Virus record (IMG/VR): IMGVR_UViG_3300037041_002705
Span: 1 to 64,000 of that record
Strand: one strand, 5' to 3'
Source of the DNA: a virus
DNA: 64,000 bases
This document shows positions 6,544 to 36,769 of the stretch, in pieces; the first letter of the stretch is position 1; each line of letters opens with the position of its first letter. The notes beneath the pieces were generated by a model that saw only the letters and a list, made by a program, of their open reading frames with translations, was not told where the DNA came from and made no database searches. A program made the translations under genes and the position numbers.

Positions 6544-6549
6544 CTGACC

Positions 6550-8748: not shown

Positions 8749-8772
8749 ATGTCATTTATTTTTTTGCTTACT

Positions 8773-10072: not shown

Positions 10073-10093
10073 GACTGGTTGGTGCAAAAACAA

Positions 10094-10120
10094 GAAAGGG
10101 ATCCAATTGGATCCCTTTTT
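10094..10120. terminator. Terminator after the S41 protease gene
   Basis: AAAGGGATCC pairs with GGATCCCTTT around an AATT centre, followed by a T-run. The minus gene that ends at 10126 can use it from the other side. Its core is nearly the same as that of the terminator at 7589-7615. Confidence 0.8.
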
Positions 10121-10125
10121 CATTT

Positions 10126-10368
10126 TCAGTTGAAGTCCCTAAACCCTTTAGGGTAGACCCACATGAAGGTCTTTTTTATGACCTTGACGCTGTCAAGAAC
10201 ATAGTCCAAAAGCCTCTCAAGGTTCAGAAGGTGGAACGTCCTTCTAAGGCTCGAGAACATGTATGGGCTTATGGACCTCTTGAGGATGTTTCCTCTCCAA
10301 TCATATCCGCGATTGAGGAGATTGTCCTTCCTTGTCAAAATCCAGTCTTTATAGTTTACCTCATACAT
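10126..10368 (-). CDS. Hypothetical protein, 80 aa
   Basis: A small basic protein (MYEVNYKDWILTRKDNLLNR at the start) with several aromatic residues. It fills the space between the protease terminator and the next minus-strand gene, with 17 bases to the latter. No family is recognised. The evidence is position and tight packing only. Confidence 0.45.
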   Translation of the reverse strand: MYEVNYKDWILTRKDNLLNRGYDWRGNILKRSISPYMFSSLRRTFHLLNLERLLDYVLDSVKVIKKTFMWVYPKGFRDFN

Positions 10369-10385
10369 GATCTATTGTATTTTTA

Positions 10386-10967
10386 TCACATCCCAAACGT
10401 AGACTTACCCCTCTTCATCCGTAGGAGTTTTGTCTTCATGGCTTCTCGTTCTGTTGGATCCACAATGGATCCAACGGCAAGATCAACATCTCCTGATGTA
10501 AGATCAAGGATTTCATCTATGTCAACACCTGAATTTATCCATATCGATGCAAGCTCTGTTATCGCAGTCTTCAGTGCACCTGTCACAAGGGAGATGACCT
10601 CACCAAAATAGTCCTCGTCGCTTATGCCTTCCATGTGTCCTGAAAGGTTCTTTAGGCTTAGGTTTTCTAAGGTTTTTGGATCAGATTCATAACCTGAACT
10701 CCATTGAACTTCCATCTGATCGGCATCTTCCCAAAAGAATCCTATGTATATCATCGTATCTCCATTGAAGAACGGAAATGTTGTCCCCTGGGTTTCAAAG
10801 ATGAAGCTCTCAAGCATCCAACCCTTTATAGGATTCACTAATACGGTTGGTATCCCTTCTTTCTTGCATCTATCATAGAACAGCTTGGTGTACCTTTCAA
10901 TTGCATCCTTTGGGGCATCTGTGATTACATTCTCGTTCAGCCAGCTTTCAAACTTCTTTATGGACAT
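10386..10967 (-). CDS. Hypothetical protein with capsid-targeting-like leader
   Basis: This 193-residue product begins MSIKKFESWLNENVI, again the F-E-x-x-L-N-E leader seen in several genes here. The middle contains an aromatic beta-rich stretch (DTMIYIGFFWEDADQMEV). The C-terminal half is acidic with a final basic RMKRGKSTFGM. No family is recognised. If the leader is a targeting peptide, the protein is packaged in the head. Confidence 0.65.
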   Translation of the reverse strand: MSIKKFESWLNENVITDAPKDAIERYTKLFYDRCKKEGIPTVLVNPIKGWMLESFIFETQGTTFPFFNGDTMIYIGFFWEDADQMEVQWSSGYESDPKTLENLSLKNLSGHMEGISDEDYFGEVISLVTGALKTAITELASIWINSGVDIDEILDLTSGDVDLAVGSIVDPTEREAMKTKLLRMKRGKSTFGM

Positions 10968-10979
10968 TGTCTAATTTTT

Positions 10980-11588
10980 TTATCTGTATACATTTCCAAT
11001 ATTGAATGCACTGTAGTCCATAGGATGGACTTGGAGCTCAAAGTAGTTGAACCTAAAGCTGCACGTAAACTGCTTTGTTGAGTTTGATATGTCTGTGTAT
11101 GTAGGAGTCAGATCACTTATCCCAAGAAACAGCACCTGCTTTAGTGTTTGGAGTATGGTCAGGTCTCCATTGCTGGTCAGATAGAGTATCTCCAGATCTG
11201 GGAAGAATTCTTCTCCCGGATCATCTGGCTCCTCGGCTGCAAAGTTTGTGTATCGTATGAGCTGCTCATACATAAGCCAGTAGTTCAGGTATGCATCAAC
11301 AAGCCTGAATGTAACCGTGAACTCTTTGTTTATAACCTGTGAGAACTTGTAGCCCTGCCTGTATGCAATCGTTCGTCCTGCCTGAACCTGTTCAACTGGC
11401 GTCACTCCTGTGATGCCAGGAAAGCTTATTGACTGGACTGTTGAATTCAGGAAGGACCTCACATCGGCATACGGAGTCGGAAGATCCTTTAGGTACTGTT
11501 GGTACTTCTCCTCTATGGCTGGATACAAGAACCCCTTTGGGAAGAGGAACTTGAACTGGTTATATCTGGCATTTAGAAAGACTGACAT
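10980..11588 (-). CDS. Tail-tube or baseplate-like structural protein
   Basis: The 202-residue protein has the beta-rich layout of tail tube proteins: an N-terminal NARYNQFKFLFP strand, VQSISFPGITGVTPVEQVQA where tubes have the SLPG or SFPG loop, then FTVTFRLVDAYLNYWLMYEQ, comparable to the long helix-strand region of gp19-type tubes, and a C-terminal CSFRFNYFELQ strand. It lies far from the main tail cluster and overlaps the start of the ligase-like gene region by one base. A baseplate or tail-terminator role is also possible. Confidence 0.5.
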   Translation of the reverse strand: MSVFLNARYNQFKFLFPKGFLYPAIEEKYQQYLKDLPTPYADVRSFLNSTVQSISFPGITGVTPVEQVQAGRTIAYRQGYKFSQVINKEFTVTFRLVDAYLNYWLMYEQLIRYTNFAAEEPDDPGEEFFPDLEILYLTSNGDLTILQTLKQVLFLGISDLTPTYTDISNSTKQFTCSFRFNYFELQVHPMDYSAFNIGNVYR

Positions 11589-13342
11589 TACGTCTGGTAG
11601 TCTATTTTTTGGGTCTTCTCAATGTCCTTTTGGAGCGCCATGTACATAGAATTTATGTAGGTTGGACACAGAGACTTGAACCTGGAGAAATCATCCTTTA
11701 GTATGTATTCAATTACCTTGTGTTCATCATCAATGTGACCAATGTCTCCAACCTCTTGGGCTATGCAATTCTTTAGCCATTGACAGACATCGCTTGTTGC
11801 ACAGATGGATTCTATGTCATACTCTTCTGATATCTCTGACAGCCTTTGCTTTACTTGATCATCGTCATCACAGAAGTGGCATGCCAATGCATCCTTGCAT
11901 GATGATGCATATGCATCAATCTGTGGTACAATGCCATCCTTTGTGAACGGTGATGCTTCATTTGGGAGACATATGAAAAAGACTCGATCAAACTCTGATA
12001 TGTCTCTTATCTTCTTCTCTAGTTCCTTCGTCATCACCAGTGGTCTTGCAACAACGACTGTTGCCGTCTTCTTCATCGGCTCATCATCATATTCAATGCT
12101 CTTTAGCTCATCAGGATCTATGAACTTGTTCATGAGATCGTCCTTGAAGATCCTGAACGTTGAGAAGTCCATGAAGCCTTCAACAAGTGGCATCTCAACA
12201 AGGTCTCTTATCTCATCGATTAGAAGGTTTATCTGGTTTATCATTGATTGCGTCAGAAGGCCATACGTTCTTCTTCTCTTCTTTCTTAGCCCAGCAAGGA
12301 TTATCTTGAACAGCTGTTCGTATGATCTATCGAGGGTCATCAACTCAAGGGTCTTTTCGTTTTCGATGAACCTTCTGTTGAGTTCAAATTCCTTGCTCTT
12401 GAGGAAGTTAGGAACTGAAAAATCAACTCCTCTGTACCTGTCCATGTTTGCTTCAATGAAATCATTGAACAGGAGACATATCAGCTCAAGGTACCTGAAT
12501 TCAGGCGTGCGTTCTCTGAGCTTATAGTTTAATCCTCTTTCGAGTATGAATGAGTAAACGTCCATGAGGGCTATTGAATACAGATCAGATGGAACTCTTG
12601 ACTCTGGAATCTCTTCGTTCATTTCAGCATTGCCTGCAATAAGAGGATCCAATGTCTTTGCGACGTATGCTCCTCCGTCCTTTGTCTTGAACCTAAAGAT
12701 GATCGAATCTGGTCTAAACACTCCTTCTTCCTGAAGAAAGCTTGAGTTGATGTTTGGATTAAGAGTCCTTATCAAAAACTCCGAGAATGTTTGCGTGCCA
12801 TACCTGTCATGGAGCTCCTTTGGCGTCAGCTTTATGTAGTCAAGGATCTTCACCTTCTGCTTATCTGTCAGGTAACCCTCAAATATGATGGGCGCAGGCT
12901 CAACCCTTAGCTCTGTTGCCCACTTTCGTATCGATTCACCGTTGTCCTTTATCTTCTCTCCATCCTGTCCAATGACTCGGACGTCAGTAAGAACAATGTT
13001 GTTCTTTGGCATCCTCTTGTACTGGGTCTTGTTTGGCGTCAGGCTTGAGAAGTAGTAACACCCAAACCTGTAGTTCTCCGGAAGGACCGCATAGTCTATC
13101 ACTGATGTTATGTGGTCTATGGCCTTTTCATAGTACTGCATCAGGGTTCTGTCGACTATGGAAATCGGATACCTCTCATCCTTTCTCCATATCGATAGCA
13201 TGCCATCCTTTACCTGGAAGGATATCCTTGCAGCATCTATCTTTTCAGTCACTATGACATAAGACGAGAAGAGTTCACTAATGAACTCTTCCGTCCTGTC
13301 TTTTACCAACTGTTGTAGTGTGTTTAGGCCTTTTTTCATCAT
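11588..13342 (-). CDS. Ligase-like nucleotidyltransferase, two-part protein
   Basis: The N-terminal half looks like a covalent nucleotidyltransferase of the DNA/RNA ligase superfamily. Motif I appears as TEKIDAARISF with the candidate adenylated Lys34 (KxDG with Ala for Gly), motif III as YRFGCYYF (residues about 91-98), then NNIVLTDVRV, EGVFRPDSIIFRF and AKTLDP as motif IV- and V-like blocks. The C-terminal half, after about residue 430 (TATVVVARPLVMTKELEKKI), looks like a separate alpha/beta domain of unknown type. Two ATG codons stand together at the start, directly behind a CATATATAG element. The assignment to ligases rests on motif order only. It sits 13 bases downstream of nrdJ. Confidence 0.45.
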   Translation of the reverse strand: MMKKGLNTLQQLVKDRTEEFISELFSSYVIVTEKIDAARISFQVKDGMLSIWRKDERYPISIVDRTLMQYYEKAIDHITSVIDYAVLPENYRFGCYYFSSLTPNKTQYKRMPKNNIVLTDVRVIGQDGEKIKDNGESIRKWATELRVEPAPIIFEGYLTDKQKVKILDYIKLTPKELHDRYGTQTFSEFLIRTLNPNINSSFLQEEGVFRPDSIIFRFKTKDGGAYVAKTLDPLIAGNAEMNEEIPESRVPSDLYSIALMDVYSFILERGLNYKLRERTPEFRYLELICLLFNDFIEANMDRYRGVDFSVPNFLKSKEFELNRRFIENEKTLELMTLDRSYEQLFKIILAGLRKKRRRTYGLLTQSMINQINLLIDEIRDLVEMPLVEGFMDFSTFRIFKDDLMNKFIDPDELKSIEYDDEPMKKTATVVVARPLVMTKELEKKIRDISEFDRVFFICLPNEASPFTKDGIVPQIDAYASSCKDALACHFCDDDDQVKQRLSEISEEYDIESICATSDVCQWLKNCIAQEVGDIGHIDDEHKVIEYILKDDFSRFKSLCPTYINSMYMALQKDIEKTQKIDYQT

Positions 13343-13351
13343 CTATATATG
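13343..13351 (-). promoter_or_regulatory. CATATATAG element abutting a start codon
   Basis: On the minus strand CATATATAG ends directly at the first ATG of the ligase-like gene, inside the short gap after nrdJ. If functional, transcripts from it would be essentially leaderless. Confidence 0.35.
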
Positions 13352-13355
13352 ATTG

Positions 13356-15821
13356 TTAACACTTAGTCCATCCGCAATCCCGACAAATCACGCAGCCGTC
13401 TCCACGCTCAACATTGTGTCCGCCACATGATGGGCACTCTTCTCCATGGACCTTTGTTCCGTCCTTGATGTACCTCTTCAGGTTTCTTGCAAGGACCTTT
13501 GCAAAGGAAAGGAGATCACCCTTTGTCTTTTCAAGCTGATGGACAACGAATCCAATGTCTGATCCATGACGCAATGAGGTTGAGATCATTCTGCACAGAG
13601 CATCTGCGTTCTCATCATTGTGTCCGTTTGTGAGCTTGTATGACTGATCACCTGAGTTGAAGAAGTAGTTTCCTCTTCCCTTCTTTGTGACTGTTCCTGT
13701 CATTCCGTTCTTTGGAATGATGGTCTCCTGCACGCCATCAGCACCATGCTCATTGATGCCAGTGAATATCTCATAAGGCTCTCCATTAAGCAATCCGATG
13801 ACAACATAATATGGATGGCCCTTGATGTTGCTGATCCATGCCTCTGCAGGAAGCGCCTCTGGCCTCTTTGGTGCATTGTTCTTTACGATGACATTTTCGT
13901 CCTTCTTCTCTTCTGTCTTCTTCTCAACAAGAACACCGGTGCGACAGTTCTTCCTGTATACAGTCATGCCCTTGCAACCATACTGCCATGCAGCTTCGTA
14001 GATCTTTGCAACTTCTTCCTCTGTAACTTCTTCTGGAAGGTTGACGGTCTTTGAGATTGCATGGTCGATGTACTTCTGTGCTGCTGCCTGGAGCTTCACT
14101 GCTTGTACCCAATCAATGTCCTCTGCGCAGTAGCCAAACCATGGTGACTTCTTAAGGTCCTTCTCGCCTGTTACTTCCATCCACATCTTCACCTTTGGAT
14201 GGTAGACCTCAAACTCCTGCCAGTGGTCTCCGTTCTGATCGACGAAGTCGGTCTTTGCATTTGCATCGTTTGGATTGATCTTCTTCCTTCTTGTGTATGG
14301 GAACAACATGAACAGCGGTTCAACACCAGATGTTGTCTGTGAGAGGATCGAAAGAGATCCTGTAGGAGCAATTGTAAGGTTTGCAATGTTCCTTCTGCCG
14401 TACTTCTCCATGTCTGCGTAGAGTTCCTTGTCTGCCTTCTGAATCTCCTTTGCAAAGCTGGTATCCTTTTCAAGATCCCAGTTCCAGATTGGGAATGCAC
14501 CGAGCTCTTTTGCCATGTCGACAGAAGACCTGAATGATGCAACCATCATCATCTTATGGATCTTTTCAACGAATGAAATGCTTTCTTCTGAGCCGTATCC
14601 CAGTCCAAGGGCAGCAATCATGTCTCCCATTGCGGTTATGCCGGTTCCCGTCCTTCTTCCATCCTGACACTTTCTCTTTACCTTGTTCCATAGATCAAGC
14701 TCTGCCTTCTTTGTCTCAGCGTCCTCTGGATCTGACTTGATCTTCTTGATGATGGCATCAATCTTTTCAAGCTCAAGATCGATCATGTTGTCCATGAGCC
14801 TTTGGCATATTACCGCATGCTCCTTGAAGAGAGAAAAGTTGAACTTGGCCTTTGCCGTAAAAGGATTCTCGACGTATGAGAACAGGTTAAGAACCATGAG
14901 GCGGCATGAGTCATACGTACAAAGTGGAAGCTCAGAGCATGGGTTTGTGCTAACAGTCTCAAAACCAAACTCCTTGTAACAATCGACCATGTTGTGGCCA
15001 GTTACGCGGTCCCAGAATAGAAGGCCTGGTTCTGCACGAAGCCATGAATTATGGATGATCTTCTTCCAGAGATCCTTTGCATCTACCCACGTATCGTTGT
15101 CACTAGGAGGTGCATCAACAGGGAAGCGAAGCCTAAACTTGTCACCCTTCTTGACTGCATCAAGAAACTCATTTGAAAGCCTAACAGAGATGTTTGCCCC
15201 TGTCACCTTTGTATCGTCATTCTTAATTGTGATGAAGTTCTCAATGTCCTTGTGAGCAACATCAACAGTAAGCATCAAGGCGCCACGACGGCCTGACTGT
15301 CCGACTTCGCGAATGGTGTTTGAATACCTCTCCATCCAGGATCCGATTCCGGTGCTTGTCCTTGCTGCATTCTTTACGCCAGTTCCAGCAGGCCTGAGCG
15401 TTGAAATGTCAACACCAACGCCACCACGACGCTTTGATATCTGTGCAAGTTCCTCATCGATTTTCATGATTCCGCCATAGCTATCCTTTGGTGAATCAAC
15501 CACATAACAGTTTGACAATGAGATCAACTGGTAGTTGTTTCCGATGCCAAACATCGGGCTTCCCTGCGGAATGATATACTTGAATCCATCGAGGAGGCCA
15601 AAGATCTGTTCCTCTGACATTGGATTTGAAAACTTCTTCTTTTCAATCCTTGCAAACTCAGATGCAATCCTTCTGTGCATGTGCACCGGAGTTGCTTCCA
15701 AAAGGTTCTGTTGGTTGTCCCTGAGTGCGTATTTGTCAAGAAATACCTTTGCTGCAAGCTCATCTCCAGCAAAATATTCCAACGCAAGTTGGAATGCCTC
15801 TTCGTATGTGTACGTCTGCAT
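13356..15821 (-). CDS. nrdJ: Class II (B12-dependent) ribonucleotide reductase NrdJ
   Basis: NrdJ reduces ribonucleotides to deoxyribonucleotides with an adenosylcobalamin-derived radical, so it needs neither oxygen nor a second subunit. Visible landmarks are SLSNCYVVD (first redox Cys), KRRGGVGVDIS, NPCSELPLC with the radical Cys and Glu, and the C-terminal redox region AWQYGCKGMTVYRKNCR. A zinc-ribbon-like CPSCGG...CVICRDCGWTKC ends the 821-residue protein, a usual length for bacterial NrdJ. It starts 7 bases after the polymerase fragment and shares its transcript. The phage thioredoxin could be its reductant. Confidence 0.95.
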   Translation of the reverse strand: MQTYTYEEAFQLALEYFAGDELAAKVFLDKYALRDNQQNLLEATPVHMHRRIASEFARIEKKKFSNPMSEEQIFGLLDGFKYIIPQGSPMFGIGNNYQLISLSNCYVVDSPKDSYGGIMKIDEELAQISKRRGGVGVDISTLRPAGTGVKNAARTSTGIGSWMERYSNTIREVGQSGRRGALMLTVDVAHKDIENFITIKNDDTKVTGANISVRLSNEFLDAVKKGDKFRLRFPVDAPPSDNDTWVDAKDLWKKIIHNSWLRAEPGLLFWDRVTGHNMVDCYKEFGFETVSTNPCSELPLCTYDSCRLMVLNLFSYVENPFTAKAKFNFSLFKEHAVICQRLMDNMIDLELEKIDAIIKKIKSDPEDAETKKAELDLWNKVKRKCQDGRRTGTGITAMGDMIAALGLGYGSEESISFVEKIHKMMMVASFRSSVDMAKELGAFPIWNWDLEKDTSFAKEIQKADKELYADMEKYGRRNIANLTIAPTGSLSILSQTTSGVEPLFMLFPYTRRKKINPNDANAKTDFVDQNGDHWQEFEVYHPKVKMWMEVTGEKDLKKSPWFGYCAEDIDWVQAVKLQAAAQKYIDHAISKTVNLPEEVTEEEVAKIYEAAWQYGCKGMTVYRKNCRTGVLVEKKTEEKKDENVIVKNNAPKRPEALPAEAWISNIKGHPYYVVIGLLNGEPYEIFTGINEHGADGVQETIIPKNGMTGTVTKKGRGNYFFNSGDQSYKLTNGHNDENADALCRMISTSLRHGSDIGFVVHQLEKTKGDLLSFAKVLARNLKRYIKDGTKVHGEECPSCGGHNVERGDGCVICRDCGWTKC

Positions 15822-15828
15822 TTTTCCC

Positions 15829-17211
15829 TTATTTTTGTTTTTGTAACTTCTTTAACTGTTCTATTGCTTTTTCTATCTCTTTTGCTTCTTCTTTGCTCTG
15901 AACCCGACGGTTGAAGAGGTTCGTTAAGAACCTTCTGGACACTGATTCTGTCTTTGCATCAAAAACCGCCCCGGTGGCAGTCCTTATATAATCGTCGCCC
16001 TCCATGTCATTTCTCTTCCCAAGGTAAGTTTCTGGAGAGATGTTGAACTGCCTCATTGTTGTAGGGTACAGACTGGCAAAGTCATACGTAACAACCCATT
16101 CATACAAGCCAGGGACTGGATCCTTAACAAATGCGCCCTCATATGTCTTGCCTTCTTCAAGCTCGCCCTTTCTCACAAGAATTCTGTTCTTGTCATAGAA
16201 CTCTCTGACAAGCAACGTCTCGGTCATTCTGATTGGGCTAAATGCACCAAGAAGTTCTACACGTGCTATATTTGCCAAAGACAGATATGTTCCCATCACC
16301 GATATCTCTTTGTCAATATACATGACAAGAAGAGTGTCTACGATGTTATAGAACACATATTTCTTGAAGTCCTTCTCATAGAGATCCTTCAATGTTCCAT
16401 TGTACTTGATCTTTGTGAGCTTAAGAACCTGGTCAGCAACGTAGTCAAGCTTTGCGGATTCCTTTACATCGACCTTGTTGTCCCACTTGCTGTAGATCTT
16501 CATGTAGTCGACGATTGGTCTGTGCTGAGGTATCGTCTCCTTGTCAACAAACTTTCTGCTAGGAGATGCAACCATAGGGTCTATGTTCAACCTCTTGCAA
16601 CGATTGACAAGATACTGCCAATCGAAGTTTGTGAAGTTCCAACCTGTGATGAGAGGCATCTGTGGGATGTACTTATTAAAGAACACATAGAGCATCTCAT
16701 ACTCATTCTCAAAGCTCATGAACTTGACAGTGAAGTCTGCATTGTACTTCTTGAAGTAGTCGTTCACATCAACCTGAATGTCTGCAACGTCACCCTGATC
16801 AAGTGGCTTTATTGAGAGAACAAATGCCTTTTGGCCATGCGCAAAGCAGATCGTTGTTATCCTGTTTGGTGCATTTGCCGGCTCAGGAAAACCATCATCG
16901 GTAACTTCAACCTCAATGTCACAGAACCACACTCGTGGCCTGTTTGGCTGGTAGATGCGATTCTTTACTTCTTCAGGAAGGCCATACAGAAACTCTTCTA
17001 CCCGATACCTTGATAGCATCGACTTCTTGGTCTTTCTGATTGCCCTGTTGTCCCAAGACCTCCAGGTTGTGTCAACATCCTTGAGCCTTGTTGCATACTC
17101 CCACTCAAAGCGCTCAGAATCAGGGATGGGGATGTTCTCAAAGACCATCATCCCATCCTCATTGAATCTGCTTATCTTCAAGAGCCCTGGTTCCTGCTCA
17201 ATGTCTATCAT
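15829..17211 (-). CDS. DNA polymerase family B, N-terminal half (split gene)
   Basis: This T4 gp43-type polymerase is cut short. Exonuclease motifs are intact: FCDIEVE (D98/E100), GWNFTNFDWQYL and YNIVDTLLV. Palm motif A is at residues 377-383 (DFASLYP), followed by RQFNISPE as in T4. The frame then ends at residue 460 after a Lys-rich helix, before motif B (KxxxNSxYG) and motif C (DTDS). Neither motif occurs in any reading frame of the window, and the downstream neighbour is an intact nrdJ. The break lies in the fingers region, where some T4 relatives have a natural 43A/43B split. A C-terminal polypeptide from elsewhere in the genome would have to complete it. The start overlaps the dUTPase stop by one base. 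Confidence 0.88.
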   Translation of the reverse strand: MIDIEQEPGLLKISRFNEDGMMVFENIPIPDSERFEWEYATRLKDVDTTWRSWDNRAIRKTKKSMLSRYRVEEFLYGLPEEVKNRIYQPNRPRVWFCDIEVEVTDDGFPEPANAPNRITTICFAHGQKAFVLSIKPLDQGDVADIQVDVNDYFKKYNADFTVKFMSFENEYEMLYVFFNKYIPQMPLITGWNFTNFDWQYLVNRCKRLNIDPMVASPSRKFVDKETIPQHRPIVDYMKIYSKWDNKVDVKESAKLDYVADQVLKLTKIKYNGTLKDLYEKDFKKYVFYNIVDTLLVMYIDKEISVMGTYLSLANIARVELLGAFSPIRMTETLLVREFYDKNRILVRKGELEEGKTYEGAFVKDPVPGLYEWVVTYDFASLYPTTMRQFNISPETYLGKRNDMEGDDYIRTATGAVFDAKTESVSRRFLTNLFNRRVQSKEEAKEIEKAIEQLKKLQKQK

Positions 17212-17696
17212 TAAAACTCCCCTGTTGAACCAAATCCACCTGTTCCTCTATCTGATTCCGTCTTAGACCGAATCGATGACATGGATGACCATCTTGCCCA
17301 CATGTCTTCTTCGCCCTCTACTTCAGTTGGCTCTGCGAGAGAGATGGGAACGAGTATGAACTGGGCAATCTTCATTCCAGGCGTTACATTGACAGGGTCC
17401 TTTCCAACATTTATCAGGGAGATATGGATCTCTCCTTGATAGTCTGAGTCACATACACATGCAAGGGAAGTAAGATTATACTTCGTTGCGATGCCTGACT
17501 TGTTGAACAGTATCAATGCATGGCTTGGAGGATATGCACACTTTATCCCTGATGGGATGAGTATGGATGAACCAGGTCTGACCACCGTTTCTTGGAAGTC
17601 ATCTGGCACAAAAAAATCTATGCCCGCGCTCTCAGCGGTCCCTCTTGTAGGTGACTTTACGGGTCTTGTCTTGGTAAAAAAGAAATCGATTGACAT
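17211..17696 (-). CDS. dut: Trimeric dUTPase
   Basis: The protein hydrolyses dUTP to dUMP, which keeps uracil out of DNA and feeds ThyX. All five motifs are present: SAGIDFF (motif 1), NKSGIATKYNLT (motif 2), CDSDYQGEIH (motif 3), GMKIAQFILVP (motif 4) and the C-terminal RGTGGFGSTG (motif 5). A stretch of about 20 residues before motif 5 (MWARWSSMSSIRSKTESD) is longer than usual. The 161-residue length is otherwise normal. It is the first gene of a dut-pol-nrdJ-ligase-like operon. Confidence 0.95.
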   Translation of the reverse strand: MSIDFFFTKTRPVKSPTRGTAESAGIDFFVPDDFQETVVRPGSSILIPSGIKCAYPPSHALILFNKSGIATKYNLTSLACVCDSDYQGEIHISLINVGKDPVNVTPGMKIAQFILVPISLAEPTEVEGEEDMWARWSSMSSIRSKTESDRGTGGFGSTGEF

Positions 17697-17744
17697 ATGT
17701 GTTATATCAATCGATTTCGTATGGTTATATGCTATTTTGCGGGA

Positions 17745-18137
17745 TTATCCCTTTGCTTTCCTAGGCTTGTAGTCAGTGACATCGATGTCAAAGCTCTTCT
17801 CCCTCTTGTGCGCTGGAAGCTCTGCAAGATCAAGATCTTCCATCTTGTCCTTTGATGACTCATCCTTTGTTGCACCGTCAACCATTGACTGGAGCTTTGC
17901 GTTCCTCTTTGCGTTTGTGAACTCTGCATAGCTGACAGTCTTTGGTGCGTACTTCATCTGGTCCATGACCTTCTTTGTCGTCAGACCTGGTGTCTGTTTG
18001 GCACCAGAAACTGGCTTCTCCATTGTTCCCTTGACATCTTCGCCGATGTCACTGTCTTTCATCTTTTGACCCTTTTGATACTTCTCTCCACTTGAGAGGA
18101 ATGCATCATAGTTCTTTGATTTATATGCTTTATCCAT
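17745..18137 (-). CDS. Hypothetical Lys-rich protein, 130 aa
   Basis: The product is hydrophilic, Lys/Asp-rich and without clear hydrophobic core (MDKAYKSKNYDAFLSSGEKY at the start, DVTDYKPRKAKG at the end), so it may be largely disordered. It lies upstream of dut on the minus strand and faces a divergent plus-strand gene across 63 bases. No family is recognised. Confidence 0.6.
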   Translation of the reverse strand: MDKAYKSKNYDAFLSSGEKYQKGQKMKDSDIGEDVKGTMEKPVSGAKQTPGLTTKKVMDQMKYAPKTVSYAEFTNAKRNAKLQSMVDGATKDESSKDKMEDLDLAELPAHKREKSFDIDVTDYKPRKAKG

Positions 18138-18200
18138 GACAGACTTTATTTTTGTTTTCTTACATTGGTATATACTACGAATTTGAAAAAAACATGCTAG

Positions 18201-18668
18201 ATGAGAAATTTTTTGAAGACATATTCTCAGATATTTGAAGAAGAGGAATCAAAATCACAACCACTGTTTGATGAATACCCAGAGTCATTGAAGAAGGACA
18301 TGGGAAAATTTGTCAAGTTCTTCAACAAGAATGTCATGCAACAGGTGAAGTGCAAGGTCAATTCTCTAAACTTTGATAGAAGAGAAGGAAGCATCACATA
18401 CATACGCTCAACTGACATAATTTCAAGCCAGTTAGGTCTATTGGGCCTTGTTGCTGATGCAGCAACAATACTCCTGAAGCTCACCCTGGATGATGTGAAG
18501 AAGGAAGCAAAGGGAAGTTTTTACCTCTGCTTTTTGGAACAAGAGATACCGTTTGGGGATATACTCCTCAAGAACGGCCAGATAATGTACGCAAGCATTG
18601 AGACCGGTGATTTTGTTGCAGTAGAAACAAGTGACTATGCAATAGGCCCTTCATCAGAACGAGTTTAA
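18201..18668 (+). CDS. Hypothetical protein, 155 aa
   Basis: The start reads MRNFLKTYSQIFEEEESKSQ, which could again be a leader with an acidic cleavage site (IFE). The body has a hydrophobic segment SQLGLLGLVADAATILLKLT and a beta-rich C-terminus (LLKNGQIMYASIETGDFVAV). No family is recognised. A GTATATACT sequence lies 24 bases upstream in the divergent gap. Confidence 0.6.
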   Translation: MRNFLKTYSQIFEEEESKSQPLFDEYPESLKKDMGKFVKFFNKNVMQQVKCKVNSLNFDRREGSITYIRSTDIISSQLGLLGLVADAATILLKLTLDDVKKEAKGSFYLCFLEQEIPFGDILLKNGQIMYASIETGDFVAVETSDYAIGPSSERV

Positions 18669-18695
18669 TCAATAATCAAAATATAGGAGAAACAC

Positions 18696-18872
18696 ATGGA
18701 AGTTGTAACAAGAAGGGTGAAAAGCCTCTTGAAGAAGGTCGAAGATCCAAATGCAGAAAAGTTTGATCTTTTCATGCACGATGTTCTTAAGTCATTTCTG
18801 ACAGGCAGTCTTTCGCCAGAGCAAGCAAAGATCGTTATTGCATTGCTACAAAAGGAAGGCTACATAGCTTAA
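18696..18872 (+). CDS. Small helical protein, 58 aa
   Basis: This short gene has a recognisable ribosome-binding site (AGGAG seven bases before the ATG). It encodes an all-helical protein starting MEVVTRRVKSLLKKVEDPNA and ending LLQKEGYIA. It sits between a hypothetical gene and a strong terminator, so it closes that transcript. The length is too short for a family call. Confidence 0.6.
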   Translation: MEVVTRRVKSLLKKVEDPNAEKFDLFMHDVLKSFLTGSLSPEQAKIVIALLQKEGYIA

Positions 18873-18896
18873 CTCTTAGGTAAATAAGAACTAATC

Positions 18897-18926
18897 AAAA
18901 AGGGGACATTCATTGTCCCCTTTTTT
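18897..18926 (+). terminator. Intrinsic terminator before the Nudix gene
   Basis: GGGGACA pairs with TGTCCCC around TTCAT, flanked by five A and six T. It ends the 18.2-18.9 kb transcript. Confidence 0.88.
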
Positions 18927-18935
18927 CATATATAG
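18927..18935 (+). promoter_or_regulatory. CATATATAG promoter-like element
   Basis: The element begins right after the terminator T-run and ends three bases before the Nudix ATG at 18939. Terminator, promoter and start codon are packed within 45 bases. Confidence 0.5.
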
Positions 18936-18938
18936 AGC

Positions 18939-19505
18939 ATGGGTGACCCCACACAATCAGCAGGGCTTCTGATGTACAGAAGGAATGGAAGTGACATAGA
19001 AGTGTTTCTATGCCGCCCATTCTCATTGGAAAGACAGAAGAGAAACCTTTGGGGGATCCCGAAGGGCAGGATCGATTCTGGAGAAAATCCAGAGGATGCT
19101 GCAAAGAGAGAGTTCTTTGAGGAAACAGGACTGACGCCGCCAAACGTACCACACTTTTACCTTGGAAAGATCATGTACCCGTCAGGCAAAAAGGAGGTTA
19201 GCGTTTGGACATTTGAGTTTGATCCTCCTAAAGGGTTTGTGTTTAAGAGTAACTACACAAAAACTAAGGATGAAGATGGTAACACCGTTGTTGTTCCAGA
19301 GATTGATGAATGGTCCTGGTTCAACATAAGGGACGCAAAGCAAAACATCATGATATCCCAGAGGGAGATACTATCAAGGTTTCTACGCTTCATGGGGAAA
19401 AACAAAAACACATATGGCAAAAAGAGCAACGGCAAAATCGATAGAACGGGCGATGGAAAAGATAGACTACAAGGAGTATCTAAATTCGGTGAACCTATCC
19501 GATAA
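18939..19505 (+). CDS. Nudix hydrolase
   Basis: The complete Nudix box occupies residues 43-64, with G43, E49, R57-E58, E61-E62 and G64 in the required spacing. It is preceded by NLWGIPKGRI. The family hydrolyses nucleoside diphosphates linked to another group, such as oxidised or surplus dNTPs, NAD or mRNA caps. The substrate is open. The last 92 bases overlap the PhoH gene in another frame, and the C-terminal tail encoded there is basic and low in complexity. The gene starts almost on top of a promoter-like element. Confidence 0.9.
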   Translation: MGDPTQSAGLLMYRRNGSDIEVFLCRPFSLERQKRNLWGIPKGRIDSGENPEDAAKREFFEETGLTPPNVPHFYLGKIMYPSGKKEVSVWTFEFDPPKGFVFKSNYTKTKDEDGNTVVVPEIDEWSWFNIRDAKQNIMISQREILSRFLRFMGKNKNTYGKKSNGKIDRTGDGKDRLQGVSKFGEPIR

Positions 19506-20169
19506 ACAGAAAGAATTCTTTGCTTCAATAGAAAAGAACACAATAACAATAGCGACAGGGCCTGCAGGAACATCAAAGACATTTACTGCGTGCTATGCTG
19601 CAATAAAGAGCCTATCAAGCGCGTCACCAATTAACAAGATAATACTAACAAAGCCCATAGTTGAAGCAGGTGAAAACCTAGGATTTCTTCCGGGTTCAGT
19701 CGATGAAAAGATGGCGCCATACATGGAGAGCTTTGTTACGACATTCCATAAGATCATTGGAAAACCAATGTTTGAGAAGCTAAAAGAATCTGACAGAATA
19801 GAGATGAGGCCTGTTGCATACATGAGAGGGTCAACATTCAACAATGCATTCATGATCCTTGACGAAGCACAGAACATGAACTTTCACCAGCTCATGACAT
19901 ACATCACAAGGCTTGGAGAAAACAGCAGGATGGTCATATGCGGTGACGTTAGTCAACATGACATAAAGCACAATCTTGTTGCACTTCCAGAGTTTCAAAA
20001 GATGATCCAAGATGTCAACAGCATCGGAACATTCAACTTTGAGAAGAAGGACATTGTAAGGAACAAGATCATAATTGACATCGTTGAAAAGTACGAAGAA
20101 TGGAAAGAGAAGAATGTGACAACAAACGAAAATGGAAAGGGCAAAGGCAATGGCAATAAAGGATCATAA
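19414..20169 (+). CDS. phoH: PhoH-like ATPase
   Basis: A P-loop ATPase with Walker A GPAGTSKT (residues 49-56) and Walker B MILDEAQN (147-154). Further PhoH signatures are ILTKPIVEAGENLGFLPG and VICGDVSQHD. PhoH proteins are common in phages, and related proteins act on RNA, but the phage role is not established. The C-terminus is a Gly/Lys/Asn tail. An alternative start at 19453 (MEKIDYKEYL) would reduce the overlap with the Nudix gene from 92 to 53 bases. Confidence 0.9.
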   Translation: MAKRATAKSIERAMEKIDYKEYLNSVNLSDKQKEFFASIEKNTITIATGPAGTSKTFTACYAAIKSLSSASPINKIILTKPIVEAGENLGFLPGSVDEKMAPYMESFVTTFHKIIGKPMFEKLKESDRIEMRPVAYMRGSTFNNAFMILDEAQNMNFHQLMTYITRLGENSRMVICGDVSQHDIKHNLVALPEFQKMIQDVNSIGTFNFEKKDIVRNKIIIDIVEKYEEWKEKNVTTNENGKGKGNGNKGS

Positions 20170-29557: not shown

Positions 29558-32500
29558 ATGCCAATGAAAATCCTACTACAATTGTTGATGCTCCTGGTTC
29601 TTGCAACCAATGCATTTTCACAGACCGAACGCCGTGGTACAATGGTGCTCACAGAGGGCCGCAAGTACATTGTTGCGTTCCCGCAAGTTCAGGCCAGTGC
29701 AACAGAGAAGCCGATGCCACAGCCAATGCAGCTGCTCATCTCTTCGAAGACAAAGACAACAGTGCGCGTCCAGACACCTGCAGGTATCAATGATGCTCCA
29801 CGTATGGACAAGGAATACACCGTAGAGGCCAACAAGGTCCTCAAGATTTCGGTGTCAACGACATACATGAATACCGAATCGGAAACCCGTAAGGGCTACG
29901 GCATCATGGTGACGTCGAAGAAGCCAATTTCGGTCTCGACATATCAGGCATGGATGGGTAACGGTGAAATGGCTCGTCACCTTCCAGTTGAGGGATGGGG
30001 CAAGAACTACTACTCAATGAACTTCTATCAGGATCGCTACGGTAATAGCTCTGGCTACAAGTACCGTCCAGCACAGATCCTTCTGATCGCTGATAAGGAC
30101 AACACTGTTGTTTCATACACACCAACAGTTGATACTGAGGGTGGCGTCGAAACACCGAGCGTTCGCAAGGGTGCAACGCAGACGATCACGCTTGAGAAGG
30201 GTGAAACATTCCTGATCAAGGCGAAGATCAACGAAGACCAAAACAAGGAATGGTCAACTGACCTTTCGAGCACACTCATCCGCGCGAACAAGCCGGTAGG
30301 TGTCGTCTCTGGTCACGTGAAGGTGGCCATCATGCGCTACCCAGACGTGCTTCCTCCAACAGGTATGTTCGCTGCGGAAGCTCACTTCGTTCGTAGCAAC
30401 GTTCACGACGCTATGCTTCCGCTTGAAATGGCTGGAAAGAAGTTCGTGACAACTCCATGTATGTACACACCAACACGCGTTGTTGGTCAGGCATCTGTTG
30501 AGTTCGGTATCGATGACGATCGCGGCGACGTGATCCGCGTGATTGCTCTCGAAGATGGTACAACAGTCAAGGCTATGCGTCAAGACGGTAGCGGACTGCT
30601 GAACAAGTGGATGCTCAAGAAGGGTGAAACACGTCTCGAGACTGCACTTGAAGTTGCAACGTACTGGGAATCAGACAAGCCGATCCTCATGGGCCAGTAT
30701 GGCAAGTCATATGCTAAGATCCTTCCTCCGGCCTTCCTCCGCGATCGCTCAAAGGGAAGCAAGGATGGCGACGAAGCACAAGGACACCCAACTGTTGAGT
30801 CGGGCATGCCAATGTTGCAGTACATCCCATCTGTTGATCGTTGGGCAGATTACGGTGTGTTCCACGCTCCAGAAGGCATGGACAACTTCTTAAACATAGT
30901 CTTCAAGTCATCTGAAATCGGCAAGATCAAGGTTGACGGTCGTGCGCTCACATCTGCGTTCGGTGGTGCAATGCGCCTCCTGAAGGGTACAGAGTATGCG
31001 TTCATCCGTACGCCAATCGGCGCTGGCGACCACTTCATCGAAACAACAGATCCAAACGTCCGCTGGGCTGCTTGGAACTACGGTTCGCTTGATGGTCTTC
31101 AGCAAGGTCGTGCATACGGCACACCTATCTCGATTGACATGACGGTCCCATGTGATGACTCTCTTGCTGTCACAGAAGAACTCGTTTGCGGTGATGTCAA
31201 GGGTGAAGGCAAGATCCTTCCAGAAAACACTTCATGTGGTTCAATCTTCGCGGTCTATCCAGAAGAAATGAACAACTACGAACTCATCGTTGATGAAGAG
31301 TTCACAAGCGGCGACAAGAAGGTTACGTTTGAAGTCAAGGTGCTCGACAAGACAAAGGATGCGACAGCTACAATCAAGATTGTATCGCGCTCTGGCAAGT
31401 TCGTCGAGAAGACATACACGTATATCGCTGACAAGATCAGCTGGACTCCATCGAAGCTTGAATTTGGTACGATTCCATTCAACACGCCAACGTCGATGAC
31501 GTTCACAATCAAGAACGAAAAGACTGACCGTCCAGTAAACATCCGCAAGATCCGCGTGATGGGTGGTGATCAGATCTTCTTGACAAATCCTACTGGCCCG
31601 ATCACACTTGGTCCATCGGAATCACGTGAAGTAACAGTTACAGCACAGATCAAGACAGCTCCACTTGTTGTTGACACAGTGATCTGTGAACTTGATTGCT
31701 ATGACCAGAAGACAGTTGAACTCCGTGTTCGTGGTGAAGAGCCTAAGATCTACGTCAGCGATGTTGATTGGGGTACTATTCCAGCAAGCACAGCTGGCAT
31801 CGAGCGCGTTGTGAAGATTCTTAATGGTAGTAAAGTAGAACTTATTATTACAGGTTATCAACAAAATCTGCTTGATGGTACAGGTAAATTCTTCAATCCG
31901 ACAACAATGGACGGAAAGTCCCTTAATTCAGTATTCCCACTTGCAATTCCTGCAAATGGCTCGTACGACTTCAAGGTGACATACAGCCCTAAGGGTGAAG
32001 TAGCTGTTCCACACCGCGTGGATGTGCCATTCTACTCGAATGCAACTGGCGTTGACAACATCGCTGTTCTGACTGGTTCAGGTAACGATGTAAACGTTCA
32101 AGCGTACTCAACACCATGGATTGAGCGCGTCATCGACAAGGTTCAGACATCGCAGAATATCAACGAGTACACACAACGTATCTCGTTTGAAAACCTCGGT
32201 GATCAGCCTGTCACATATGAAGCACCGGTCATCCGCGGTACAGACGCATCGAACTTCCGCCTGGTTGACAACGGTAACGTAGGTACGTTCCCAGTTCAAC
32301 TTGTCAAGGGTTCTACAAATCAAACGCGTTATGTCACGGTCGCATTCGTTCCAACGGAACTCGCAAACCGTGCTGCAGAGCGCAAGTACAATGCAGAAAT
32401 CGTCTTCACGACAACAGGTGCTGATGGCGCAAAGAAGGATGTTGTTGCTGCTCTTGACGGAACAGCATGGCAGCCACAAGTCAAGGGCAATGATCTTGAC

Positions 32501-34045
32501 TTCCCAGGCACACTAAATGTTGGAGATGAGGCAAAGGTTCTTTCGATCCCAGTATCGAATGAGCACTTCTTGGGTCAGTCAAACCCGACAGACGGTACCC
32601 CAGCTGGTACATACAACGTTGTGATCACAGACATCAAGATCACAGACGCTGCAACTCGCTTTGAACTCCTGAATGCACCAACACCAGCTAACCCTTTGGT
32701 TATCAAGCCAGGTGAGGCTCCGGTTGAACTCCAAGTACGCTTCGACCCATCGGTCTCAGGTACATTCGAGTCGCCATATGTGATCAGCACGAACGTTGGT
32801 ACAAAGGGTCAGGCGACATACGAGCCTACCTATAAAATCACAGCACGTGTTCAAGGTGGTGAGTTCACGGTAACAGATGCAGATGCAGAGCAGTATGTCT
32901 TCAACACGAAGGACATGGCTATCCGCATCAAGCACACTGAGAACCAGACGATTCGCTACAACATTGCTCAGCCAACAGGCCCTGATGCTTCACGCTTCGT
33001 CATCGTTGACCAATTCGTCGACGTTGCTCCAGGCCAAGAAGTTGCAGTTCCTGTGATCTTCATGCCTGACTTCGTTACAAAGCTCCGTAATGGTCAATCA
33101 GACCTCAAGGACGCAAACAACGAGTGGACAAAGAAGGCGAAGACACAAGGCATCATGTGGCGTGGCAATAGCTTCGCAGCTGAAGTCGTTATCTCTGACG
33201 ACCGTAATGCAGCGAAGACAAAGACAGCAACGCTTACAGGTAACGGTCTCTTCCTTGAGACAACGAACCTGATCAAGGATACATACACGGTTGCACCTGG
33301 TGCATCAGTTGACATCCCGGTTGAACTCAATGCAACACCTGAATCTGTTGATGCAGTTGGCATGACAGAACTCCGTGTGCGTCTGAGCTGGGATCCGAAG
33401 CTTGTCAAGCCACGTGTTAATGCCGCTGACTTCATCACAGCTGGCCTCCAAGCTGAAGGCTGGACTATTCGCGCAACACCAATCAATGGCAAGCCTTCAG
33501 ATGCATCGAACTCAGTTGAGATCGATCTCTGGGACGAGCGCGCAAATCCAGTTGCTATCAAGAACAACGGTACACCGGTATTCAGTGTGAAGTTCGATGC
33601 ATTCTTTGATAAGGGCGTGTCGGGCACATTCACATCACCGCTGAACATCTACACGTACACTGTTGACCACGACAAGTCTGGTGATCGTAAGGATTACACG
33701 CTCTTCCGCGATATTCCTGGCAAGATCACAATCACAATGCCATGCGCATCGATAACACGCCTTGTTGCTGTTGGTAACTTCAAGTATGCGGTCAAGCCAA
33801 TGAGCCCTAACCCAGTTTCGAACTCAGGTATCATCAGCTACTCAGTGGGTCTTACAGCGAACACACGTATCGTTCTCTTCAACAGCATGGGTCAAGAAGT
33901 TCAGACACTCATCAACGATAAGCTTGAAGCTGGTAGCTATGAGATGACAGTTGACTTCTCGAATCTCCCAACTGGTACATACTTCTATCGCGTCATCTCT
34001 GGTCCGTTCTCGAGCGAACCACAAACAGTGACAGTAGTGAAGTAA
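29558..34045 (+). CDS. Giant secreted surface protein with T9SS sorting domain
   Basis: This 1495-residue protein has a signal peptide (MPMKILLQLLMLLVLATNAF, cleavage near FSQ). Residues about 25-520 look like an IgGFc-binding-protein N-terminal domain as found in bacterial surface proteins (RPAQILLIADKDNTVVSYTP, VGVVSGHVKVAI). Several ASH/Hydin-type beta domains follow (LEFGTIPFNTPTSMTFTIKN, VDWGTIPASTAGIERVVKIL), then a cohesin-like domain near residue 1240. The last 80 residues form a type A T9SS sorting domain (MSPNPVSNSGIISYSV, VLFNSMGQEVQTL, DFSNLPTGTYFYRV). All Arg codons sampled are CGT/CGC, unlike virion genes. It stands alone before a strong terminator. It is probably exported to the host surface and anchored there; adhesion, shielding or superinfection exclusion are guesses. 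Confidence 0.82.
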   Translation: MPMKILLQLLMLLVLATNAFSQTERRGTMVLTEGRKYIVAFPQVQASATEKPMPQPMQLLISSKTKTTVRVQTPAGINDAPRMDKEYTVEANKVLKISVSTTYMNTESETRKGYGIMVTSKKPISVSTYQAWMGNGEMARHLPVEGWGKNYYSMNFYQDRYGNSSGYKYRPAQILLIADKDNTVVSYTPTVDTEGGVETPSVRKGATQTITLEKGETFLIKAKINEDQNKEWSTDLSSTLIRANKPVGVVSGHVKVAIMRYPDVLPPTGMFAAEAHFVRSNVHDAMLPLEMAGKKFVTTPCMYTPTRVVGQASVEFGIDDDRGDVIRVIALEDGTTVKAMRQDGSGLLNKWMLKKGETRLETALEVATYWESDKPILMGQYGKSYAKILPPAFLRDRSKGSKDGDEAQGHPTVESGMPMLQYIPSVDRWADYGVFHAPEGMDNFLNIVFKSSEIGKIKVDGRALTSAFGGAMRLLKGTEYAFIRTPIGAGDHFIETTDPNVRWAAWNYGSLDGLQQGRAYGTPISIDMTVPCDDSLAVTEELVCGDVKGEGKILPENTSCGSIFAVYPEEMNNYELIVDEEFTSGDKKVTFEVKVLDKTKDATATIKIVSRSGKFVEKTYTYIADKISWTPSKLEFGTIPFNTPTSMTFTIKNEKTDRPVNIRKIRVMGGDQIFLTNPTGPITLGPSESREVTVTAQIKTAPLVVDTVICELDCYDQKTVELRVRGEEPKIYVSDVDWGTIPASTAGIERVVKILNGSKVELIITGYQQNLLDGTGKFFNPTTMDGKSLNSVFPLAIPANGSYDFKVTYSPKGEVAVPHRVDVPFYSNATGVDNIAVLTGSGNDVNVQAYSTPWIERVIDKVQTSQNINEYTQRISFENLGDQPVTYEAPVIRGTDASNFRLVDNGNVGTFPVQLVKGSTNQTRYVTVAFVPTELANRAAERKYNAEIVFTTTGADGAKKDVVAALDGTAWQPQVKGNDLDFPGTLNVGDEAKVLSIPVSNEHFLGQSNPTDGTPAGTYNVVITDIKITDAATRFELLNAPTPANPLVIKPGEAPVELQVRFDPSVSGTFESPYVISTNVGTKGQATYEPTYKITARVQGGEFTVTDADAEQYVFNTKDMAIRIKHTENQTIRYNIAQPTGPDASRFVIVDQFVDVAPGQEVAVPVIFMPDFVTKLRNGQSDLKDANNEWTKKAKTQGIMWRGNSFAAEVVISDDRNAAKTKTATLTGNGLFLETTNLIKDTYTVAPGASVDIPVELNATPESVDAVGMTELRVRLSWDPKLVKPRVNAADFITAGLQAEGWTIRATPINGKPSDASNSVEIDLWDERANPVAIKNNGTPVFSVKFDAFFDKGVSGTFTSPLNIYTYTVDHDKSGDRKDYTLFRDIPGKITITMPCASITRLVAVGNFKYAVKPMSPNPVSNSGIISYSVGLTANTRIVLFNSMGQEVQTLINDKLEAGSYEMTVDFSNLPTGTYFYRVISGPFSSEPQTVTVVK

Positions 34046-34067
34046 TCGAGCAGTAGCACGTAACCTC

Positions 34068-34104
34068 AACAGCCTCCTTCCGGAACTCCGGGAGGAGGCT
34101 GTTT
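34068..34104 (+). terminator. Strong terminator after the T9SS protein gene
   Basis: AACAGCCTCCT pairs with GGAGGAGGCTGTT over an inner CCGGA/CTCCGG stretch, followed by TTTCATTAT. It isolates the giant surface protein gene from the lysis cassette. Confidence 0.85.
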
Positions 34105-34169
34105 CATTATAAACACAGCTTTTCCTCTTAAGGTAGAGATAAATACCACCAGTAAAAAAACCCAACCAT

Positions 34170-35427: not shown

Positions 35428-36114
35428 ATGAAAAATGTAATTCTGTCCATCGCATTCTTGCTTGGAATTTTGATGGTTCCTTCGTGCTCTGACATCACAA
35501 CAAAGCCAGAAGAGCCAAATGCAATGTACTTCCAAGTGAACGGCGATGGATCATATGCTGAGCCCGAGGCAGTTGGAGAACGCCCAAATAGGGATTCAGT
35601 AAAGAAGGACACAACAGATAGAAAGAGGGATACCACAACAGGCCGCAAGGATACTGTTAAAAAGGCACCCCCAACTATATTCGGTGACCTACTTAACAAG
35701 CTAAACCTTGGTCCAGATCAGAATGCAATCGTTGAAAGGCTGCTTGCTCAACACAAGGCATGCGTAGAAGAATGCGTAAAGCCACTGAAGGCAGCAGAGG
35801 CAGAGATACTCGCAAAGGCCCGAAAACAAGAGGCAGAGATCAAAAAGGCAGTTGAAGCAGGCACAATAACAAAGGCCCAGGCCCGCGTAAAGCTTGCTGC
35901 CCTAAAGGCAAACGTCAATAAGGCACTAAAGTCACTTCCAGTTCGTCGGTCAGTACAAGAATGCATAAAGGCATGTGATGCGACTTTTATAAATGGACTT
36001 GAGCGAATTCTCAGTGCCGACCAAAAGATCATACTAAAGAGCTGGTTGGATTCAAGGGCAAAGCGTGGCACTTCTGGAAAGAAGGATACGACTGATGTTA
36101 AGCCAAGAGGTTAA
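35428..36114 (+). CDS. Exported lipoprotein with Spy-like helical domain
   Basis: The signal peptide ends in a lipobox with Cys20 (LMVPSCSD), so the protein should be lipidated. A charged Lys/Asp/Thr linker (residues 50-75) leads to a helical region that opens LNLGPDQNAIVERLLAQHKA, similar to the L-x-x-Q repeats of Spy/CpxP-type periplasmic proteins, with four Cys in CVEECVKP and ECIKACDA. An AGGAG lies before the start. Placed just after the endolysin, it could take part in outer-membrane disruption like a spanin, or it could protect the envelope. Confidence 0.7.
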   Translation: MKNVILSIAFLLGILMVPSCSDITTKPEEPNAMYFQVNGDGSYAEPEAVGERPNRDSVKKDTTDRKRDTTTGRKDTVKKAPPTIFGDLLNKLNLGPDQNAIVERLLAQHKACVEECVKPLKAAEAEILAKARKQEAEIKKAVEAGTITKAQARVKLAALKANVNKALKSLPVRRSVQECIKACDATFINGLERILSADQKIILKSWLDSRAKRGTSGKKDTTDVKPRG

Positions 36115-36184: not shown

Positions 36185-36769
36185 ATGAAGACATTTTTGA
36201 TTTCTATTCTTTGCTTGCTCTCAATGGTGCCTGCATTTTCACAGGAAACACCTGTTTGTGCAACTCCAGCAAAGAAGTATGTAAACGAGCTTGGTTTGGT
36301 ATTCCCAACAAAGACCGATGACATAAAGGGCTACATCAATGCAAACAACATTGCAGTCAATCCTTTGACGTCTGGTTTTAGCTCAGGCTTTCAAGTAGGA
36401 AAGCACCGCATTATAAATGACCAAGCCACACTTGGCGTTATATTGGCTGCAAATGGATTCTTCTCTGCAGGATCTGCCGAGAACCAAATCTATCAGTTTG
36501 GTGCATATCTAACAGGAAGGCTATACTTTGGTGAGACGTGGAGGAATGGAGTTTTTGCAGAAATTGGAGCGGGTCCAGAAGTTGCAGCAGCATCAGTCCA
36601 AGGCGGCGACTTCCAGTTCCAGGCAAACTTTGGAACAAAGCTGGGTGTTGGATACAACTACCAGTTTAACAAGGATGTAACGCTTGGTCTTTCCTTCATC
36701 ACAGCACCATCGATGCTGTCAGACAACTACTTTAATGGATCTAAGATTGTTGTCAATATGCTTTGGTAA
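36185..36769 (+). CDS. Outer-membrane beta-barrel protein
   Basis: A signal peptide (MKTFLISILCLLSMVPAFSQ) precedes a mature chain of about 174 residues with alternating amphipathic strands and Gly/aromatic turns (NQIYQFGAYLTGRLYFGETW, GTKLGVGYNYQFNKDVTLGL). The chain ends in an aromatic residue (NMLW), the usual beta-barrel insertion signal. An AAAGGA lies 8 bases before the start. Its placement in the envelope cassette suggests a role in the infected cell, such as blocking a receptor, rather than in the virion. Confidence 0.75.
   Translation: MKTFLISILCLLSMVPAFSQETPVCATPAKKYVNELGLVFPTKTDDIKGYINANNIAVNPLTSGFSSGFQVGKHRIINDQATLGVILAANGFFSAGSAENQIYQFGAYLTGRLYFGETWRNGVFAEIGAGPEVAAASVQGGDFQFQANFGTKLGVGYNYQFNKDVTLGLSFITAPSMLSDNYFNGSKIVVNMLW

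What the first reader, a model, noticed from the sequence alone, without database searches (positions are those of the whole stretch)
29558..34045. 1495-residue phage protein with signal peptide and T9SS sorting domain
The protein combines a Sec signal, an IgGFc-binding-like N-terminal domain, repeated ASH-type beta domains, a cohesin-like domain and a complete type A sorting domain. That is the architecture of a host cell-surface protein. It lies between phage replication and lysis genes. A phage exporting a giant surface protein through the host type IX system would be a new route for altering the infected cell, for example by masking receptors, linking cells or resisting predators.
Basis: partly seen in the sequence, partly recalled or inferred. 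Interest (0 to 1): 0.8.

Follow-up and report, generated by a model that had tools for sequence, protein, structure and literature searches.

The report
Phage-borne bacterial surface protein
A virus of bacteria carries a recently captured, nearly unchanged copy of a giant outer-surface protein of a Kapabacteria-type bacterium, fitted with a different export signal, so it probably makes the infected cell display or secrete this protein through the cell's own export machine.

Summary
ORF 29558-34045 encodes 1495 aa with an N-terminal export signal, an IgGFc_binding domain (E 6e-42), choice-of-anchor D/ASH domains and a T9SS type A sorting domain above the curated cut-off, in a 133.7-kb myovirus-type phage record, between helicase and endolysin genes. 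From codon 23 to about 60 bp past the stop the gene is 95.7% identical in DNA to a chromosomal gene of a Kapabacteria/Ignavibacteria MAG (98.8% outside four diverged islands) and falls inside the host clade. The signal peptide is not the host's; the host's downstream hairpin came along. The three host genomes have the PorU sortase; the phage record has none. A second, unrelated phage (L172) carries a diverged homologue, also just before its endolysin and next to homologues of two other exported phage proteins (window 2899-4483), so an assembly chimera is very unlikely. Best reading: a host surface protein captured by, or overwritten in, the phage, exported through Sec and the host T9SS, probably altering the infected cell's surface; that last step is inferred. 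Phage-encoded T9SS cargo is not new (Cryophage, PMC7468147). New are the giant IgGFc/ASH cargo, its traceable host origin and the signal-peptide exchange.

The parts
29558..34045 (+). CDS of the 1495-aa IgGFc_binding/ASH/T9SS protein
29558..29622 (+). signal peptide of non-host sequence; its last 12 bases (GCATTTTCACAG) are the same as in the signal peptide of the phage gene 36185-36769
   Evidence: host identity begins at 29623; junction sequences; shared 12-mer; host signal peptides differ
29623..34105 (+). tract derived from a Kapabacteria/Ignavibacteria chromosome (95.7% DNA identity to L021)
29981..31054 (+). IgGFc_binding domain (residues 142-499)
   Evidence: PF17517 E 5.9e-42; AlphaFold model with pTM 0.70, nearly all beta
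31412..31648 (+). best choice-of-anchor D (ASH-like) domain (residues 619-697); a second stretch is also reported
   Evidence: NF012200 52.2 bits, two stretches
33209..33742 (+). cohesin-like domain (about residues 1218-1395), weak
33803..34003 (+). T9SS type A sorting domain (residues 1416-1482)
   Evidence: TIGR04183 29.7 bits against a cut-off of 23;
34068..34103 (+). host-derived terminator-like hairpin kept behind the stop codon
   Evidence: fold -33.2 kcal/mol, z -6.4; the stem is identical in L021 and L022
4079..4483 (-). second phage protein (134 aa) with export signal and T9SS type A sorting domain; counterpart near the giant gene in phage L172
2899..4065 (-). 388-aa exported protein with Ala/Asp-rich repeats, directly downstream of 4079-4483; homologue (28-30% over full length) directly upstream of the giant gene in L172
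34170..34478 (+). small membrane protein before the endolysin (holin candidate, no family match)
   Evidence: homologue at the same place in L024
34509..35348 (+). endolysin (GH19 with peptidoglycan-binding domain); homologue follows the giant gene in L172

Best explanation
The gene is a genuine phage gene whose body is a host surface-protein gene of a Kapabacteria/Ignavibacteria bacterium. It was captured recently, or an older phage copy was overwritten recently by recombination with the host's copy. It now stands behind a different signal peptide and leader and keeps the host's terminator-like hairpin. Proposed working: (1) it is transcribed in the infected cell from sequence that is not the host's (inferred); (2) Sec exports it with that signal peptide (inferred from sequence); (3) the host T9SS recognises the type A C-terminal domain, and PorU cuts it and attaches the protein to the surface or releases it (family knowledge; PorU shown in the donor genomes); (4) the protein then coats or changes the surface of the infected cell. 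The likeliest benefit is less adsorption of further phages, or of the phage's own progeny, to infected cells and their debris; it could also keep up a surface layer the cell needs during a long infection. Steps 1-3 about 0.8 likely; the specific benefit in step 4 about 0.35.
For: Sorting domain above curated cut-offs. Orthologues in three MAGs lie in one conserved chromosomal neighbourhood: HIT protein, KsgA, PAP2 family, the gene, sugar dehydrogenase. Full-length orthologues, 96 down to 47% identical, occur in about 20 genomes of the order, so the gene is native to the host. The phage copy is sister to the G001 orthologue with starred support. 98.8% DNA identity outside four islands, with a 650-nt identical run. 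The signal peptide is exchanged and the host hairpin kept. The frame is intact and dN/dS to the G001 gene is 0.17. Donor genomes have PorU at 675-825 bits against a cut-off of 420, the phage record none. A second phage, L172, carries a homologue next to endolysin and next to the same two exported partners. A more distant phage relative, L024, lacks the gene between helicase and holin.
Against: Nothing shows expression, export or surface display. The L172 homologue has no recognisable T9SS tail, so the T9SS step is not conserved between the two phages. No other phage in IMG/VR or INPHARED was found with the gene. Host assignment rests mainly on this gene; no strong CRISPR-spacer-like match was seen for window 1-20000. 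Part of the low dN/dS may have been inherited with a recent capture.
Confidence: 0.72

Rival explanations
1. Functionless passenger: a host gene picked up by illegitimate recombination or transduction, with no benefit to the phage.
For: Outside the islands identity to the host gene is 98.8%, so the event is recent, and the host hairpin came along.
Against: The junction is in frame exactly at the signal-peptide boundary with a different signal peptide. 4.5 kb stays open. A second phage keeps a much-diverged homologue in the same setting beside the endolysin and the same partners.
Confidence: 0.12
2. Assembly chimera: a host contig joined into the phage contig.
For: The near identity to a MAG gene is what a chimera would show; reads are not available here.
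Against: Two breakpoints would be needed, one of them in frame at the signal-peptide boundary. Codons 22-96 are only 89% identical to either host species, although the two hosts are 96% identical to each other there. The signal peptide ends like one of the phage's own. L172 independently has the same gene order giant-endolysin with the same partners.
Confidence: 0.05
3. The product works away from the cell: released after PorU cleavage as a soluble decoy or glue, binding competing phages, debris or predators.
For: Type A sorting domains can lead to release as well as anchoring (family knowledge). The protein is built of binding-type beta domains.
Against: No ligand or receptor is known, and no solved relative was found by sequence or fold.
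Confidence: 0.2
4. A virion protein (decoration or fibre) rather than an exported one.
For: Ig-like and adhesive domains are common on phage particles (general knowledge); the second phage's copy lacks a T9SS tail.
Against: Export signal plus sorting domain; position among helicase and lysis genes rather than tail genes; no PHROG tail or fibre match.
Confidence: 0.05

Closest known systems
Chromosomal IgGFc_binding/choice-of-anchor D/T9SS protein of Kapabacteria-type MAGs (L021/G001, L022/G002, L023/G003)
   Same: Same protein: 96, 93 and 92% identical residues; same architecture; the downstream hairpin is identical in L021 and L022
   Different: Host copy has another signal peptide and leader and lies in a housekeeping neighbourhood; the phage copy has four diverged islands
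Phage-encoded T9SS type A cargo of Cryophage (PMC7468147)
   Same: Phage genes with a T9SS type A sorting domain, presumed by those authors to be exported by the host system
   Different: Cryophage cargo is an endoglucanase, a GH39 and a PA14 protein; here a giant host surface protein with no enzymatic domain found and with a traceable donor
IMG/VR 3300005805_000190 (L172), a second phage
   Same: IgGFc_binding/ASH giant (77% identical over the first domain) upstream of endolysin, with the 388-aa and T9SS-tail partner proteins
   Different: C-terminal part strongly diverged and no TIGR04183 tail; partners adjacent to the giant gene, whereas in the window they lie 25 kb away
T9SS-tail proteins of other phage records (L140-L158)
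   Same: TIGR04183 above cut-off in phage records
   Different: Shorter proteins (open frames about 200-720 aa); none of the records searched has IgGFc_binding

Membership tests
T9SS type A cargo (TIGR04183 / PF18962) | C-terminal sorting domain above the curated cut-off | tested here: met
   29.7 bits against 23; 34.6 against 27
T9SS type A cargo (TIGR04183 / PF18962) | Sec signal peptide | tested here: met
   strong hydrophobic N-terminal core by hydropathy only; no dedicated predictor available
T9SS type A cargo (TIGR04183 / PF18962) | producing cell has a T9SS | tested here: met
   PorU (NF033707) over cut-off in the three donor-type genomes; other T9SS parts not searched, and the host of the phage is inferred
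T9SS type A cargo (TIGR04183 / PF18962) | T9SS-dependent secretion shown | not testable with these tools
   needs an experiment
IgGFc_binding (PF17517) | domain match above the gathering score | tested here: met
   144.4 bits against 25.6, profile 6-290 of 297
IgGFc_binding (PF17517) | actual binding of IgG Fc | not testable with these tools
   the family name alone is not evidence of this activity in an environmental bacterium
Cohesin (PF00963) | domain match above the gathering score | tested here: not met
   no match in the phage protein; matches in 5 of 9 sequences of the domain alignment, best E 1.2e-4
Host-derived phage accessory gene (moron/AMG) | gene embedded among phage genes, absent from a phage relative, nested in a host clade | tested here: met
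   the closer phage relatives L008-L018 do not cover the site
Superinfection exclusion protein | expression in the cell blocks adsorption or DNA entry of phage | not testable with these tools
   proposed only

The most novel reading that the evidence does not exclude
Two unrelated phages of Kapabacteria-type hosts keep an export cassette (giant IgGFc/ASH protein, 388-aa repeat protein, small T9SS-tail protein) that re-dresses the infected cell's surface. The giant gene is repeatedly refreshed by recombination with the host's own gene, so that the phage always displays a host-matching surface protein.
Probability: 0.25. Interest if true: 0.75.

Novelty: new variant of a known kind. Interest (0 to 1): 0.62.

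Why it matters
If right, a phage copies one of its host's largest surface proteins almost unchanged and re-targets it with a different export signal. That would be a very direct case of a virus using the host's own type IX system to control the outside of the infected cell. Because the donor gene and species are identifiable, what T9SS surface proteins do for a phage becomes testable. It also ties a phage group to the poorly known Kapabacteria, and it suggests that T9SS cargo in Bacteroidota-type phages deserves a systematic survey.

Tried and rejected
Assembly chimera: considered first and set aside because of the in-frame junction at the signal-peptide boundary, the diverged 5' end and the independent L172 cassette. 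Islands as remnants of an older phage copy related to L172: at 31 columns where the three near hosts agree and the phage differs, L172 matches the phage 9 times and the host 8 times, much like some hosts; inconclusive. Phage promoter class: TATATA is enriched upstream of phage genes (16 against 3 expected), but this gene lacks it. A shared AGTAACTAGT...TACATTT element with the gene at 127717 is suggestive only, since 133 gene pairs share some upstream 10-mer. CRISPR or other host link from window 1-20000: only PhoH similarity, short low-identity matches and one short intergenic similarity; the rest of the record was not searched this way. PDB relatives of the N-terminal domain: none by sequence or by fold at E 0.001; the only good fold match is FirrV-1-C4 of a brown-algal virus. 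Exact signal-peptide DNA in other viral contigs: none. Rfam: none.

Full report
What is there. The ORF at 29558-34045 is real and as described: 1495 aa, export-type N-terminus, IgGFc_binding domain (residues 142-499, E 5.9e-42), choice-of-anchor D/ASH domains, and a T9SS type A sorting domain above the curated cut-offs of both Pfam and NCBIfam. The cohesin-like region is supported only through orthologues. The window is part of a 133,673-bp IMG/VR record with an otherwise coherent myovirus gene set: terminase, DNA polymerase, clamp loader, helicase, tail sheath, major head protein, endolysin. The gene follows a helicase, a small ORF and a DUF1599-type ORF and precedes a small membrane protein and the endolysin.

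Where it comes from. No phage in INPHARED encodes a relative, and patterns from the single protein found none in IMG/VR. In bacterial genomes three MAGs titled uncultured Ignavibacteria bacterium, Melioribacter roseus (isolate MiE-14oct19-197) and Candidatus Kapaibacterium sp. encode it at 96.4, 92.9 and 91.7% identity. All three lie in the same chromosomal setting (HIT protein, KsgA, PAP2-family protein, the gene; then a sugar dehydrogenase, a Kdo-transferase-type protein and an enoyl-CoA hydratase where the contig extends; names by reading the translations), with no phage genes seen. Full-length orthologues, 96 down to 47% identical, occur in about 20 genomes of the order. On a maximum-likelihood tree the phage copy is sister to the G001 orthologue with starred support, deep inside the host clade.

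How it was joined. DNA identity to the L021 locus starts at 29623 and ends at 34105. The host signal peptide (MKSMIAVVMMTILGIGVISA...) is absent; the phage protein starts with MPMKILLQLLMLLVLATNAFSQ, whose last 12 bases recur in the signal peptide of the phage's outer-membrane-type gene 36185-36769. Downstream, the host's hairpin is retained (-33.2 kcal/mol, z -6.4). So the unit carried over is mature protein plus terminator-like hairpin, behind a different leader and signal peptide. Of 190 differences from the G001 gene, 153 fall in four islands that make up 28% of the length; outside them identity is 98.8%, and the clustering far exceeds chance (variance 37.7 against at most 6.6 in 2000 random placements). 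The islands were chosen after looking at the data; the variance test does not depend on that choice. Several of the islands are more diverged than the two host species are from each other there, so the copy is a mosaic; the source of the islands was not found. Overall dN/dS to the G001 gene is 0.17, against 0.06-0.07 between hosts.

Is it a chimera? The single strongest argument against is a second viral record, L172 (IMGVR_UViG_3300005805_000190, 39.8 kb). Its other genes (by reading: glycosyltransferases, a DUF1599-type ORF, a GroES-like protein, endolysin) look like those of a large phage, and apart from this cassette, the endolysin and one short match it shares nothing detectable with the window's phage. 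It carries a 1411-aa homologue, 77% identical over the N-terminal domain but with a strongly diverged C-terminal part, directly upstream of an endolysin 64% identical to the window's. Directly upstream are a 388-aa homologue of window 2899-4065 and, before it, a small exported protein with a T9SS type A tail like window 4079-4483. In the N-terminal tree the two viral sequences do not group and starred branches force two separate changes. So the giant protein and two exported partners recur together in two phages, the giant next to the lysis gene in both. In L172 the giant itself has no recognisable sorting tail, while the small partner has one. The 388-aa protein has only partial, weak matches in the host order, so it looks phage-specific.

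Could it be exported? The three donor-type genomes encode the T9SS sortase PorU well above cut-off; the phage record does not. A phage exporting cargo through the host T9SS has been proposed before: Cryophage has three T9SS type A genes (PMC7468147), and T9SS sorting domains occur beside and in crAss-like BACON ORFs (PMC6949934). Here 19 of 49 phage records fetched through the terminase, helicase and endolysin carry a TIGR04183 domain over cut-off. That sample is not random, because records were picked by similarity to this phage's genes. IgGFc_binding occurs in only one of 38 such records, L172.

What it does. The N-terminal domain models as a nearly all-beta fold of moderate confidence (pTM 0.70, mean pLDDT 67.5) without a solved relative. 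The host function is unknown. The most economical explanation is that the phage makes the infected cell display or secrete a host-type surface protein. Reduced adsorption of other phages or of progeny to infected cells and debris is the benefit thought most likely, with maintenance of the surface during infection and a released decoy as alternatives. None of these was tested.

Verdict. Observation confirmed; interpretation partly supported; a new variant of a known kind (phage-encoded T9SS cargo), made unusual by its size, its traceable and recent host origin, the exchanged signal peptide, and an exported cassette shared with a second phage.

Noticed in passing
window 8882-10072 (+): Phage-encoded S41 peptidase with PDZ domain and an export signal (PF03572 E 5e-34).
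   Followed up: partly
window 35428-36114 and 36185-36769 (+): A lipoprotein-like protein and an outer-membrane beta-barrel-like protein follow the endolysin, so at least six proteins with export-type N-termini are encoded in this phage.
   Followed up: partly
window 6404-6474: Short stretch between the ORFs 5557-6276 and 6627-7220 with 71-88% DNA identity to several genomes of the host order; no Rfam match. Unexplained.
   Followed up: no
L140-L158 (other viral records): In about a dozen of these loci the T9SS-tail protein is accompanied by a roughly 240-aa lipoprotein-like protein that looks CsgG-like by eye.
   Followed up: no
whole record, upstream of phage genes: TATATA is enriched in non-coding upstream regions (16 genes against 3 expected), including tail sheath and other structural genes; possible phage promoter element.
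   Followed up: partly
window 29981-31054 (IgGFc_binding domain model): Best fold match among viral proteins is FirrV-1-C4 of a brown-algal virus (probability 1.00, TM about 0.41).
   Followed up: no
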